Part shown: positions 6,726-10,734 of the stretch, in pieces
How the letters are laid out: every line of letters begins with the position of its first letter
How positions within the stretch are numbered: the first letter of the stretch is position 1
Assembly: GCA_005879255.1 (NCBI GenBank)
Contig: VBKY01000106.1
Location: 23,531 to 58,347, forward strand
Direction of reading: 5' to 3'
DNA length: 34,817 nucleotides
Source of the DNA: Deltaproteobacteria bacterium
GTDB lineage: Bacteria; Desulfobacterota_B; Binatia; UBA9968
The notes under the pieces: model-generated
Seen by the model: only the letters and a program-made list of their open reading frames with translations
Told to the model about the DNA's origin: nothing
Databases searched by the model: none
Program-made: the position numbers and the translations under genes

Positions 6726-8888
6726 GTGACCATCTACTCCATTCCAACACTAGCCACGGCGCTCCTTTCGCTGGGGCTAGGTCTTTTCATTCTAGGCAGG
6801 AACAGCAAGTCCAAGTTGAATTGGACGTTTGCATCCTGGTGTTTACTCACGTGCTACTGGCAAACGTGTTGGACAGTCCTCTTCAATGTTCATAACCTGC
6901 AAGCAGCCGAGTCCCTCGCCCGATTGGGTTATTCTGGGATCATCTTCATTCCAATCGTATTTTTTCACTTTGTTGTTGAATTTACCAAAGCGGAGCGAGC
7001 GCGTTTATTTTCATACGTCTTTTATGTGCTAGGGGGTCTTTTTTTTGTTTCGGTTTGGCAGACATCTTATTTCGTCACCGGTGTCTATCTATACTCCTGG
7101 GGTTACTATCCTCGGGGCGGCGTGCTGCATCTCATCTATCTCGCTTTCTTGCTGGTGATGTTGCTTTCGGGGTTGCGATTGCTATGGCAATTTAAGCGCC
7201 AGTCTTTAGATCAACCGAATAGGTTGAACCAAACGAAGTACATCATCGCCTCTACCGTGATTTATTCGATGGCAGGCGTTGATTTTCTTGCCAACTATGG
7301 CTTTGGCTACTATCCATTAGGTTTGGTTTTTACCAATATACACGCCTGCATAATTGCGTATGCGATAATTCAATATCGACTGTTGGATGTCCGCGTTGCA
7401 ATCAAGCGGAGCCTTATTTACGCACTGATTCTCGTTGCCCTCCTTGTCCCGTGTTACACCGTCGTCATTCAAGGTCAATGGTATGCTTTCGGTGAGATCA
7501 GCTACACCTTTTCGTTCATCACTTTACTGCTTCTTATTGGAGTCGGCTTTTTGTTCCCGAAGTTTAGGTTCAAAACGGAGGACGCTCTAGAACGCGTCTT
7601 ATTTAAAAAACGAGTCGATTTCCGCGATACGCTGCTTCGTTCAAGTAGAGATATGGTTTCCATCGTAGATATTAGGGCTTTGTCTGAGAATGTAGTGCGC
7701 ACAATTGCCAAGTCGCTGGGGGTCGAAAAAGTCTCGTTGTTACTGAACAATGATGCAAAGGGCAGCTATGATCTCGAAACCATGGTCGGGTTGGATCTTG
7801 ATCGATCAGAGGCGGTATTTTTAACCAGGGGGAGCCCGCTAACTCAATTACTTCAGCGTCGGAAAGAGCCGGTCGTCAAAGAAGAGCTCGAATGGATCCC
7901 TGTCGGGCCGGAAACGCCTCAGACGATCGAAACGATGGCCAAACTCGAGGCGGAAATAAGTCTACCGATTATATCGAAAGATAGACTCGTTGGAATTATT
8001 AATCTTGGTCGGAAAGAGGACAGAACAATTTATTCCGACGAAGATCTGGAACTGCTTTCAACGTTGGCAAACCAAGCAGCAATTGCGATTGACAACGCGC
8101 GACTCTACGAGAACTTGAAACAGTCTCAAGATACACTCCGCAGAGCGGACAGGCTTTCATCGTTAGGCTTGTTGACAGCGGGCTTGGCGCACGAAATTCG
8201 TAACCCGCTGGTTGCCATTCGCACTTTCACCCAGTTATTGCCTGAACGTTACGACGATGCGGAGTTTCGTGAGGGTTTTCAGGGGCTCGCACTCAAGGAA
8301 GTTGATCGGATTTGTGGGCTAATCAACGACCTTTTGAGCTTCGCACGTCCTTCTAAGCCGAACAAAGCCCCGGAAAACGTCAATGACGTGGTCGATAACA
8401 TCGCGCGGATACTCGAGACCCAAGCGAAAGAAAAGAGCGTGGCAATTTCGCGTGAATTCGGTGACAATCTGCCCAAGGTTTGGATTGACAGAGAACAAAT
8501 GAAGCAGGTATTTATGAACCTTATACTGAATGCCATTCAGGCCATGAAGGAAGGGGGATCGATCAGCATTTCAACCCGTCCAGTCTCGAGAAACGGTACT
8601 CAACCGTCCGGGGATTTTGTGCAGGTCGAGATTCGAGATACCGGCGTCGGCATACCGGAAGAAAACCTGCAGCATATTTTCGATCCGTTCTTCACCAGCA
8701 AGGATGAAGGGAGCGGCCTCGGTCTAGCCGTGTCCCATCAAATCGTGCAGGAACATGGCGGCTTCGTCACGGTGGAAAGTCATGTTGGAAAGGGGACAGC
8801 ATTCTTTGTCCATGTTCCGGTCGGCAAGCCGGTGCGCCCGGTAACGAACGGCCACGCTCACGCGAATGAAGCGAATCTTAGTCATTGA
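6726..8888 (+). CDS. Membrane sensor histidine kinase (7TM-GAF-HisKA-HATPase)
   Basis: A 720-residue inner-membrane kinase. Residues 1-275 hold about seven to eight hydrophobic helices resembling the 7TM histidine-kinase N-terminal module. A GAF-type domain follows at about 305-460. The DHp helix has LAHEIRNPLVAIRTF with phospho-acceptor H489. The ATPase domain has an N box (FMNLILNAIQ), DTGVGIP and GSGLGLA, so it looks fully active. The GTG start at 6726 has GAGG 8 nt upstream. The tail overlaps the next gene by 23 bp, which suggests translational coupling. The layout resembles PrsK of PEP-CTERM systems, but no exosortase or PEP-CTERM gene is visible, so I do not name it. Likely partners are the downstream NtrC-type regulator and the unusual fusion protein between them. 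The signal is unknown. Confidence 0.92.
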   Translation: MTIYSIPTLATALLSLGLGLFILGRNSKSKLNWTFASWCLLTCYWQTCWTVLFNVHNLQAAESLARLGYSGIIFIPIVFFHFVVEFTKAERARLFSYVFYVLGGLFFVSVWQTSYFVTGVYLYSWGYYPRGGVLHLIYLAFLLVMLLSGLRLLWQFKRQSLDQPNRLNQTKYIIASTVIYSMAGVDFLANYGFGYYPLGLVFTNIHACIIAYAIIQYRLLDVRVAIKRSLIYALILVALLVPCYTVVIQGQWYAFGEISYTFSFITLLLLIGVGFLFPKFRFKTEDALERVLFKKRVDFRDTLLRSSRDMVSIVDIRALSENVVRTIAKSLGVEKVSLLLNNDAKGSYDLETMVGLDLDRSEAVFLTRGSPLTQLLQRRKEPVVKEELEWIPVGPETPQTIETMAKLEAEISLPIISKDRLVGIINLGRKEDRTIYSDEDLELLSTLANQAAIAIDNARLYENLKQSQDTLRRADRLSSLGLLTAGLAHEIRNPLVAIRTFTQLLPERYDDAEFREGFQGLALKEVDRICGLINDLLSFARPSKPNKAPENVNDVVDNIARILETQAKEKSVAISREFGDNLPKVWIDREQMKQVFMNLILNAIQAMKEGGSISISTRPVSRNGTQPSGDFVQVEIRDTGVGIPEENLQHIFDPFFTSKDEGSGLGLAVSHQIVQEHGGFVTVESHVGKGTAFFVHVPVGKPVRPVTNGHAHANEANLSH

Positions 8889-10734
8889 TGAATCGGAGGT
8901 CGTCCGAGAGACGTTGGCTCTCATTCTCGGGCGCGAATTCGTCGTATCCAAGCGGCCGCTTGGAGCAAAAGGCCTGGCGCTCTCCGAGATACACGAAGAA
9001 TTCGATCTACTGATCCTCGGTGTATCACCGCGTTACGGACTGGAGGCCGCGAGCCTCGTGCGGTTTGCTACGCGATTGCCATTTACAGTGCTTTTTTTGG
9101 TCGATTCGAAGACGACCGCGCGAATAATCGGAGATCTGACAAAACCGTTCAACCCATATGAGCTACACGAGAAGGTCGGGCAGCTGCTGGCTCGCCGTGT
9201 CACTTTACCAAGAGACGACGTGCTGGCGCGGGCACGTGAGTCGAGGAATTTCTCGCGATATGTGGATTTCCCTTACCTCAGCAGGAGCGCGGCAACTTTG
9301 GTGCGAAGATTTGCCGCGACGCGGCTGCCGATTTTGATCTCCGGGGAGATTGGCTGCGGGCAAAATCGAATCGCATCAGGAGTTCTTTGGCTTCAGAAAA
9401 TCTCCGGATCGCGAATTTTCATCAACGCGGCCGAGCTTAGTGAAGAGTACTTGGGTCAAAAAAGTCTCGAGCTATCGGTAGGTCGAGTGCCACAGGCAGC
9501 ACCGCCTACACTCGTGATCGAAAATCTCCATAAAAGCGGCGTTTCCGGCCAATCTTTGCTGTTGCGCTTTTTGGAAGACGCGGAAGAGAAATCGGCCCAG
9601 ATACGTTATTTAGCGACAGCAAATGTCGATCTCTTACAAAACGTCTATGCGGGCGACTTCCTCGAAGCGCTTTACTATAAGCTGGCGACACTCACGCTGA
9701 AACTGCCGCCCCTGAGAGAACGTCGCGAAGATATTCCGGTGATCGCAGAGTGGTTCGCCCGTAGTTACGCGGAAACGCTCGGTCTGAGTGAGCCGGTTCT
9801 CTCTACCGAAGCCCAGAGTCGACTCTGCAATTACATGTGGTTCAGCAATCTCAGCGAATTGGAGACTGTGATGGCGCGAACGCTTGCGTGGCACAGAAAG
9901 TCGCGCATCGAAGCCGCTGACCTGGTTTTTGACTTTAGCGTCGACACGCACGTAAAGGAATTAGTCGATTTTGCCGAGTTTATGCCAGCCGGAAAACAAG
10001 CGGGTTTCGATTTGGCAGAGCCGGTGTTACAGGTCGGCAGCGCCGTCCCGGCGGCCAATGTGTCAGCAAACGGTCACGGAAAGTCAGTGGATTTGAATGT
10101 CGTGATTCACGAGCTCGCCCATGAGCTCAAGAATCCGATGGTGACGATCAAAACCTTCGCCCAACTGCTTGGCGAGCGCTATCAGGACGAGAACTTTCGC
10201 TCTCGTTTCCAAGAAGTGGTTGGCGACGACATCGAGCGGATGGACGAACTTTTAGAAGTGATGATCGAGTTTGCCGACTTTGCCGCGCCTCGCCGGAGCA
10301 AGGTGGACCTTGTAGAAAAGCTTCAAAGCGTGTTGAGCGAACTTCAAAATGAATTTGCCAAACGCCAGACGCGGTTCGAGTGGAAAGGAAATGGCGGCAG
10401 GCACGAAGTCCAAAGCGATGAATCGCAGCTGTCGTACATTCTCAAGAACGTGTTGCTGGCGAGTCTGTCGCAGGCCAGAATGGGCAGCGAAATCGAGATC
10501 AATCTCCCGCAAGGCGGGACTCTAGCGATCACCTATCTGCGGGAGGGGGCACGGGTGACGTCGATCACTCATTACTTGGACGGCGCATCATCTCGTCCCG
10601 ACGACAGTATTCTGCCGCTGCGCGTCTTGTTGGCGAAACAGCTCTTGGAGAGAAACGGCGGGCAGTTCGTCATCGACCAGTCCGACAGCGATAACGAAAC
10701 AATGAGAATGGAGTTCCCGATTGCAGAGCACTGA
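8866..10734 (+). CDS. Pseudo-receiver / pseudo-NtrC AAA+ / HisKA fusion protein
   Basis: A 622-residue soluble protein with a very unusual build. Residues 1-110 form a receiver fold (RILVIDESE at the start, K93 in LTKPF), but the phospho-Asp position is Gly52 (DLLILGVSP). Residues about 135-355 match the NtrC AAA+ domain, clearest in LPPLRERREDI, but the Walker A lysine is Gln (GEIGCGQN, Q166), Walker B is LVIENL instead of a DE motif, and the GAFTGA loop is absent. There is no C-terminal Fis DNA-binding domain. Instead residues about 405-475 are a DHp domain with H419 (LAHELKNPMVTIKTF), then an ATPase-like domain keeping an N-box-like KNVLLASL but lacking the DxGxG and GLGL motifs. It overlaps the kinase gene before and the NtrC gene after. 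It likely acts as a scaffold, decoy or phosphotransfer protein between those two; this is inference. Confidence 0.85.
   Translation: MKRILVIDESEVVRETLALILGREFVVSKRPLGAKGLALSEIHEEFDLLILGVSPRYGLEAASLVRFATRLPFTVLFLVDSKTTARIIGDLTKPFNPYELHEKVGQLLARRVTLPRDDVLARARESRNFSRYVDFPYLSRSAATLVRRFAATRLPILISGEIGCGQNRIASGVLWLQKISGSRIFINAAELSEEYLGQKSLELSVGRVPQAAPPTLVIENLHKSGVSGQSLLLRFLEDAEEKSAQIRYLATANVDLLQNVYAGDFLEALYYKLATLTLKLPPLRERREDIPVIAEWFARSYAETLGLSEPVLSTEAQSRLCNYMWFSNLSELETVMARTLAWHRKSRIEAADLVFDFSVDTHVKELVDFAEFMPAGKQAGFDLAEPVLQVGSAVPAANVSANGHGKSVDLNVVIHELAHELKNPMVTIKTFAQLLGERYQDENFRSRFQEVVGDDIERMDELLEVMIEFADFAAPRRSKVDLVEKLQSVLSELQNEFAKRQTRFEWKGNGGRHEVQSDESQLSYILKNVLLASLSQARMGSEIEINLPQGGTLAITYLREGARVTSITHYLDGASSRPDDSILPLRVLLAKQLLERNGGQFVIDQSDSDNETMRMEFPIAEH

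What the first reader, a model, noticed from the sequence alone, without database searches (positions are those of the whole stretch)
8866..10734. Triple-degenerate signalling fusion: dead receiver, dead NtrC AAA+, and a kinase DHp with decayed ATPase
The sequence shows a receiver whose phospho-Asp is Gly52, an NtrC-type AAA+ domain whose Walker A Lys is Gln166 and whose Walker B and GAFTGA loop are gone, and then a HisKA domain (H419) in place of the usual Fis DNA-binding domain, ending in an ATPase-like domain without its ATP-binding boxes. It lies between an intact 7TM kinase and an intact NtrC regulator, overlapping both genes. The fold parts are known families; this arrangement is one I do not recognise. 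It might bring kinase and activator together, poison activator hexamers by co-assembly, or pass phosphate through H419 like a ChpT/Spo0B-type protein. The function is inference.
Basis: partly seen in the sequence, partly recalled or inferred. Interest (0 to 1): 0.82.

Follow-up and report, generated by a model that had tools for sequence, protein, structure and literature searches.

The report
Dead kinase-activator chimera beside NtrC
A bacterial signalling gene that fuses worn-out copies of a gene activator and a sensor kinase belongs to an old, conserved family that almost always sits next to one particular working activator, and it has kept the amino acids that could pass on or remove a phosphate, so it is probably a control part rather than junk.

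Summary
In detail: residue 52 is Gly, Walker A Lys is Gln166, the GAFTGA loop is deleted, a HisKA hairpin carries H419, and the ATPase-like end lacks its ATP boxes. It is neither a pseudogene nor an assembly error. I aligned 85 relatives. In the class (Binatia by name of close relatives), all 67 orthologues of the neighbouring NtrC with upstream sequence have this gene directly upstream. Outside it, four loci repeat the order ketosynthase - 7TM kinase - fusion - NtrC - REC-kinase - orf. GAFTGA and DxGxG are absent in 85 of 85, and some members lack REC. H419, N423 (H+4) and P424 stay in 85 of 85. The H+1 acid needed for autophosphorylation is lost in 18 of 85, though not in the window. The neighbouring NtrC keeps its catalytic residues in 76 of 76. 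Best reading: an ATP-independent histidine phosphotransfer/phosphatase module on an NtrC-like shell that docks the adjacent NtrC and sets its phosphorylation, working like PhyT or ChpT without belonging to either. Function is inferred. In passing: a conserved sigma54 promoter and dyad between NtrC and the REC-kinase.

The parts
8866..10734 (+). Fusion protein (pseudo-REC / pseudo-AAA+ / DHp / degenerate CA), 622 aa
   Evidence: 85 relatives
8866..9192 (+). Pseudo-receiver (residues 1-109); Gly52 at 9019-9021; Asp8 and Lys93 kept
9250..9939 (+). Pseudo-AAA+ shell of NtrC type (residues 129-358); Gln166 at 9361-9363; GAFTGA loop deleted
10093..10275 (+). DHp hairpin (residues 410-470) with the invariant H419-x-x-x-N423-P424; His codon 10120-10122
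10297..10716 (+). CA-like (Bergerat-fold) domain (residues 478-617) without the second N-box Asn, DxGxG or GxGLG
6726..8888 (+). 7TM-GAF-HisKA-HATPase sensor kinase, intact; overlaps the fusion by 23 bp
10748..12154 (+). NtrC-type sigma54 activator (REC-AAA+-Fis), intact, GAFTNA; its orthologues in the class are the constant neighbour of the fusion (ORF listed from TTG 10721)
12157..12171 (+). Dyad GGACAAATTTGTTCC, candidate NtrC-binding site
12245..12260 (+). Candidate sigma54 -24/-12 promoter TGGCATATTCCTTGCT
12275..13396 (+). REC-HisKA-HATPase protein, intact by Pfam; probable NtrC-controlled gene and possible phosphoryl donor or acceptor
13389..14090 (+). Conserved orf without Pfam match, follows the REC-kinase
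5440..6705 (+). Beta-ketoacyl synthase-like gene, first gene of the conserved order in several relatives

Best explanation
The protein is a dedicated regulatory partner of the adjacent NtrC. The NtrC-like part (pseudo-REC and AAA+ shell) and the DHp hairpin let it bind NtrC. Because it should not bind ATP, H419/N423 act on the NtrC receiver without ATP: H419 takes phosphoryl from NtrC~P or hands it over from another receiver (for example that of the REC-kinase), and N423 supports hydrolysis. Net effect: it holds NtrC and sets its phosphorylation level against the 7TM kinase, as PhyT does for PhyR. NtrC in turn probably switches on the downstream REC-kinase/orf operon through a sigma54 promoter, closing a loop. 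Shown here (sequence, model): architecture, losses, invariant HxxxNP, near-constant pairing with NtrC, DHp helix 1 of the same kind as the operon's kinase, promoter and dyad. Inferred: binding, loss of ATP binding, direction of phosphoryl flow, sign of the effect.
For: (1) H419, N423 and P424 in 85 of 85; DxGxG 0 of 85; second N-box Asn 11 of 85. The H+1 acid is lost in 18 of 85; on the NtrC tree this needs 4 changes, at least 3 forced by well-supported branches. Kinase ORFs of the same loci read HExxNP in 46 of 48, the other 2 unparsed. In CrdS the H+1 acid is needed for kinase activity only and the H+4 Asn for phosphatase activity only (PMC3510030, passages). (2) Pairing: 67 of 67 NtrC orthologues with upstream sequence in the class have it directly upstream; 80 of 82 relatives with at least 700 bp downstream have NtrC next. 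(3) Helix 1 (30 aa from His) is on average 52% identical to the kinase of the same locus (46 pairs) against 23% to the REC-kinase (30 pairs), so it should dock the same receiver. (4) NtrC keeps phospho-Asp, Lys, Walker A/B and Arg finger in 76 of 76. (5) Precedent: PhyT, with HRxxN plus a degenerate ATPase and encoded beside PhyR, passes phosphoryl via His and sequesters PhyR (PMC5898713; abstract, Introduction and passages).
Against: No biochemistry. The window itself and its close relatives keep the H+1 acid (E420; acid in 67 of 85), so the kinase-acid argument comes from other branches. The first N-box Asn is kept in 49 of 85 and the CA fold is retained, so nucleotide binding is not strictly excluded. 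Pfam-recognised HisKA domains lack the His in only 0.9% of cases (PMC12632262, passages), so an invariant His alone is weak evidence. Asn and Pro could be kept for the helix kink. In CrdS the His itself is only weakly needed for phosphatase activity, and no phosphatase activity was seen for PhyT in vitro, so the data do not tell phosphotransfer from phosphatase. The REC-kinase is beside it in only 39 of 64 assessable cases (a lower bound), so it cannot be an obligatory neighbouring donor. If only the DHp mattered, the conservation of AAA lid residues (R284, R286, W325, N328 invariant in the 25 rows of A3) would need another reason.
Confidence: 0.5

Rival explanations
1. Purely structural partner: the pseudo-AAA/pseudo-REC shell co-assembles with NtrC (mixed dimers or hexamers) or caps it, keeping it inactive or tuning ring assembly; the DHp only dimerises.
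Against: Several members lack REC and part of the AAA core but keep HxxxNP; it does not explain why His and Asn are the most constant residues.
Confidence: 0.25
2. It heterodimerises with the operon's 7TM kinase through the DHp and tunes that kinase, as RetS does with GacS or DivL with CckA (roles recalled).
Against: No kinase ORF recognised next to it in 28 of 74 members with at least 700 bp upstream; the H+1 acid is lost in 18 of 85, which should hinder phosphorylation of H419 by a partner CA domain.
Confidence: 0.15
3. Decaying duplicate or pseudogene of the kinase-NtrC pair, kept by linkage.
For: The degeneration itself.
Against: At least 120 nearly full-length relatives at 58-99% identity (capped list), one group for the AAA part, open frames, invariant residues in 85 of 85 and retained pairing inside and outside the class.
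Confidence: 0.02

Closest known systems
PhyT/PhyP of the alphaproteobacterial general stress response (PMC5898713; abstract, Introduction, passages)
   Same: Kinase-like DHp with HxxxN and a degenerate ATPase, non-acidic H+1 (as in part of this family), encoded beside the response regulator; passes phosphoryl through His and sequesters the regulator.
   Different: HRxxN motif of the HWE/HisKA_2 kind and membrane-anchored; no REC or AAA+ shell is described in what I read; the regulator PhyR is not a sigma54 activator. Here the DHp is Pfam HisKA.
ChpT and Spo0B histidine phosphotransferases
   Same: DHp hairpin plus, in ChpT, a kinase-like C-terminal domain that does not bind ATP (PMC3433190, passages).
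   Different: No NtrC-like N-terminus (recalled for Spo0B); neither was among the 38 sequence matches of the DHp-CA profile in the PDB.
NtrC-family sigma54 activators (NtrC1, AtoC, ZraR)
   Same: Order REC-AAA+-lid and predicted fold.
   Different: No GAFTGA loop, no Fis HTH, altered ATPase and phosphorylation sites; C-terminus replaced by DHp-CA.
NmpRSTU of Myxococcus xanthus (PMC6211767 abstract and one section; PMC11841059 abstract)
   Same: Multi-component NtrC pathway with a kinase, a REC-HisKA-CA hybrid and an extra protein in one locus.
   Different: The extra protein, NmpT, is described as a phospho-sink; no REC-AAA-DHp chimera is named in what I read.
Pseudo-kinases RetS and DivL (roles recalled; structures)
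   Same: Kinase-like proteins working through DHp contacts.
   Different: No sigma54-activator part; here the near-constant neighbour is a response regulator rather than a kinase.
HisKA-HATPase-REC-AAA-HTH fusions (P0280, P0259)
   Same: Kinase and NtrC modules in one chain.
   Different: Opposite order, with HATPase_c, Response_reg, Sigma54_activat and HTH_8 all recognised.

Membership tests
sigma54-dependent activators (bEBP) | AAA+ fold of Sigma54_activat type | tested here: met
sigma54-dependent activators (bEBP) | GAFTGA loop that contacts sigma54 | tested here: not met
   0 of 85: a loose pattern rang in 4 (L001, L002, L179, L192, all GAFS-type and none at the AAA loop)
sigma54-dependent activators (bEBP) | Walker A Lys and Walker B DE | tested here: not met
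   Window Gln166 and EN; Lys in 26 of 85 relatives
sigma54-dependent activators (bEBP) | DNA-binding HTH | tested here: not met
   No HTH family in the window protein or in the 11 other family members scanned of 84
Response-regulator receiver | Phosphorylatable Asp | tested here: not met
   Gly52; at this column G in 36, D in 10, other 22, gap in 17 of 85
HisKA histidine kinase | Phospho-acceptor His in a DHp hairpin | tested here: met
   HisKA E 7.2e-08; His in 85 of 85
HisKA histidine kinase | ATP-binding N and G boxes | tested here: not met
   DxGxG 0 of 85; first N-box Asn 49, second 11 of 85; one GxGLG-like pattern, in L192
HisKA histidine kinase | Autophosphorylation with ATP | not testable with these tools
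   needs protein
DHp-type phosphotransferase (ChpT/Spo0B) | DHp dimer flanked by an ATP-less CA-like domain | tested here: inconclusive
   Monomer model has DHp plus Bergerat-like fold; dimer not modelled
DHp-type phosphotransferase (ChpT/Spo0B) | Carries phosphoryl between two receivers | not testable with these tools
   needs 32P assays
PhyT family | HWE/HisKA_2 DHp | tested here: not met
   Pfam assigns HisKA PF00512 and no HisKA_2 to the window protein and the members scanned
PhyT family | Degenerate ATPase and gene beside the regulator | tested here: met

The most novel reading that the evidence does not exclude
The chimera is a built-in regulatory subunit of a sigma54 activator assembly: its dead AAA+/REC shell takes seats in or caps the NtrC ring and so places a phosphotransfer/phosphatase DHp directly on the NtrC receivers, a control element housed inside the activator complex and kept across distant bacterial lineages.
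Probability: 0.17. Interest if true: 0.87.

Novelty: new variant of a known kind. Interest (0 to 1): 0.7.

Why it matters
Databases name members 'sigma 54-interacting transcriptional regulator' or 'DNA-binding NtrC family response regulator', which the missing GAFTGA loop and HTH make unlikely. If the reading is right, this NtrC has a third, nearly obligatory partner made of pseudo-enzymes, and natural sequence separates phosphatase/transfer residues (kept) from kinase residues (lost in several branches). That makes a standing question, what pseudo-kinases and pseudo-receivers do, testable with a small set of point mutants.

Tried and rejected
Sequencing or assembly error: rejected; relatives from many genomes show the same kinds of loss in open frames.

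A wider architecture found elsewhere: of the 65 loci L016-L080 of the genome scan I opened 16; in all 16 the match was a separate kinase gene next to an NtrC gene, with no fusion. The other 49 were seen only as match ranges, plus as a source of NtrC rows: 64 of 71 loci (L016-L080, L087-L092) gave an ORF with Walker A Lys and GAFT/GSFT. P0280/P0259 are complete fusions in the opposite order.

Phylum search threshold: with A3 at E<=1e-40 all 395 genomes matched because ordinary NtrC proteins score. I counted as family only rows of at least 242 bits reaching the DHp; the next rows (220.9 bits and below) that I looked at cover REC-AAA only.

NtrC orthologue cut: my own, at least 427 bits (69 of the 83 genomes listed there), below which paralogues start at 391 bits. 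One genome, G131, has an 88%-identical NtrC fragment (380 bits), no fusion and a shortened locus. It is an exception or an assembly gap and lies outside the 67.

Rows dropped before counts: L013 (truncated), L093 (same locus as L001), L015 (same locus as L193), G256, G412 and G284 (not fetched). L175 is a contig-end fragment but was kept.

Regulon search: the promoter pattern and the dyad occur elsewhere in 6 genomes, but no second clear dyad-plus-promoter target was established. First sigma54 scan had a wrong spacer length, 1 of 76 hits; corrected. The dyad was read off the window and close relatives, so its enrichment there is partly circular.

Tree: some NtrC rows carry ORF extensions (L156 is a long outlier); used only for the number of label changes. 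ChpT and Spo0B were not in the fold or sequence matches shown; that does not exclude likeness. Pseudogene reading: rejected (see rivals).
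Full report

A FAMILY, NOT AN ACCIDENT OF ONE GENOME. A search of 5.8 billion proteins gave 3297 hits at E<=1e-3 among 7996 scored; the 120 listed are 97-100% covered at 58-99% identity. The named ones include Candidatus Binatia (P0002, 84%) and Deltaproteobacteria, and a few other labels such as Chloroflexota (P0035). 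In 24 aligned, Gly52, Gln166 and His419 are invariant. One scan of GTDB genomes gave 14 relatives at 39-59% (L001-L014) and one at 30% (L015), in MAGs named Deltaproteobacteria except L012, named Proteobacteria. Of the 148 genomes held for the class of L003's genome (Binatia is my inference from P0002 and others; the tool names no taxa), 31 match at E<=1e-50. Searching instead with the window's NtrC gave 69 genomes with an orthologue of at least 427 bits (my cut). I fetched 48 of these 69 regions: 46 carry a relative of the fusion immediately upstream (23-33% identity by BLAST, in some only over the DHp-CA part), and 2 are cut at the contig start. For the other 21, the coordinates are adjacent (for the frame-broken G130). 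So 67 of 67 assessable; G131, with an NtrC fragment and no fusion, is outside this count. Among 395 genomes of the phylum, 23 outside the class (handles not among the 148) also carry it (rows of at least 242 bits). I fetched 20 of the 23. Four of these 20 (L221, L222, L225, L227) show all six genes in the order ketosynthase - 7TM kinase - fusion - NtrC - REC-kinase - orf13389; others show parts of it, many cut by contig ends. One is named Desulfobacterales (P0219).

WHAT IS KEPT AND WHAT IS LOST. I aligned 85 members (window; 18; 46; 20). Kept in 85 of 85: H419, N423, P424. Absent in 85 of 85: the DxGxG box and the GAFTGA loop. Variable: Walker A Lys 26 of 85; phospho-Asp column G 36, D 10, gap 17; Asp8 49; Lys93 40; first N-box Asn 49, second 11; H+1 E 56, D 11, other 18 (Q 9, R 7, H 1, K 1). 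The window has E at H+1. The non-acid state needs 4 changes on the NtrC tree, at least 3 forced. Some members (443-538 aa) lack the receiver. Controls from the same loci: NtrC keeps Asp, Lys, Walker A Lys, Walker B Asp and Glu, and Arg finger in 76 of 76, and kinase ORFs read HExxNP in 46 of 48, the other 2 not parsed by the pattern. The AAA parts of 20 of the 85 members form one group apart from 17 operon NtrC and 22 other NtrC sequences, support 100/100, with long branches.

NEIGHBOURS. NtrC follows in 80 of 82 members with at least 700 bp downstream (79 by ORF, 1 by tblastn at a contig end; exceptions L216, L220). A kinase ORF lies next to it in 46 of 74 with at least 700 bp upstream; another kind of kinase could be missed by BLAST. 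The REC-kinase lies within reach in 39 of 64 with at least 2.6 kb downstream, a lower bound because at least two are hidden in fused ORFs. The constant partner is therefore NtrC.

MECHANISM. In HisKA domains the acid next to His is needed for kinase activity only, and the Asn/Thr four residues on for phosphatase activity only (CrdS; passages of PMC3510030). This family keeps the second throughout and lets the first go in several branches, and its ATP boxes are gone. The invariant His speaks for phosphotransfer as well, with the caution that Pfam-recognised HisKA domains rarely lack it (0.9%, PMC12632262, passages). Helix 1 of the DHp is of the same kind as in the kinase of the same locus (mean 52% over 30 aa, 46 pairs) and unlike the REC-kinase (23%, 30 pairs), so it should face the same receiver, that of NtrC. 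PhyT is the nearest worked example: HRxxN, degenerate ATPase, gene beside the regulator, phosphoryl transfer through His, and sequestration of the regulator; phosphatase activity was not seen there in vitro (PMC5898713; abstract, Introduction and passages). I therefore favour an ATP-independent phosphotransfer/phosphatase and docking role on NtrC (0.5). Pure co-assembly (0.25) and tuning of the kinase (0.15) are the rivals.

OUTPUT OF NtrC, FOUND IN PASSING. Between NtrC and the REC-kinase lies TGGCATATTCCTTGCT (12245-12260) with a dyad GGACAAATTTGTTCC (12157-12171) upstream. In relatives, the region after NtrC holds such a promoter in 29 of 76 (28 of 75 without the duplicate L093), against a mean of 1.8 in shuffles, 3.3 in random windows of the same loci and 2 on the other strand; upstream of the fusion it is found in 1 of 93 ORFs and upstream of the kinase in 2 of 53. 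It is present in 26 of 45 loci with a REC-kinase and 1 of 30 without. The dyad core is within 1 mismatch in 13 of 28 promoter regions (0.25 in shuffles), partly circular because the motif was read off some of them. sigma54 is encoded in 6 of 6 class genomes tested. So NtrC probably drives the REC-kinase operon; 19 of 45 loci with a REC-kinase show no such site.

NOVELTY. None of eight paper searches listed a description of this chimera; I saw titles and abstract openings, and subscription journals are mostly outside that library. The parts and the likely mode of action have precedents, so I call it a new variant of a known kind.

Noticed in passing
window 12157-12260: Conserved dyad and sigma54 -24/-12 promoter between NtrC and the REC-kinase; marks the REC-kinase/orf13389 pair as probable NtrC target.
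   Followed up: yes
window about 9136, codons 90/91 of the fusion: 18-bp in-frame deletion (6 residues before LTKPF) against the 99%-identical P0001 and the other rows of A1; natural or assembly.
   Followed up: partly
L003 4346-8885; similar gene sizes in L006, L008, L011, L013: The operon's kinase can swap its sensor part: sCache-HAMP instead of 7TM-GAF, preceded by VTC-domain, MFS and phosphonate-type binding-protein genes (Pfam run on L003 only).
   Followed up: partly
L163, L167, L169, L177 downstream of NtrC: In one branch radical SAM genes follow NtrC, two of the four scanned with a CofH/MqnC C-terminal match, one of them weak.
   Followed up: partly
window 13389-14090: orf13389 has no Pfam match but travels with the REC-kinase inside and outside the class.
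   Followed up: no
operon NtrC orthologues (78 ORFs of 76 loci): GAFTGA motif varies: GAFTNA 23, GSFTDA 21, GAFTDA 18, GAFTGA 12, other 4.
   Followed up: no
window 531-3795: Two divergent class I Glu/Gln-tRNA synthetase genes, one with Anticodon_2, one with the tRNA-synt_1c_C domains.
   Followed up: no
L196 (G131): Locus with a broken, N-truncated NtrC, the REC-kinase and no fusion.
   Followed up: partly
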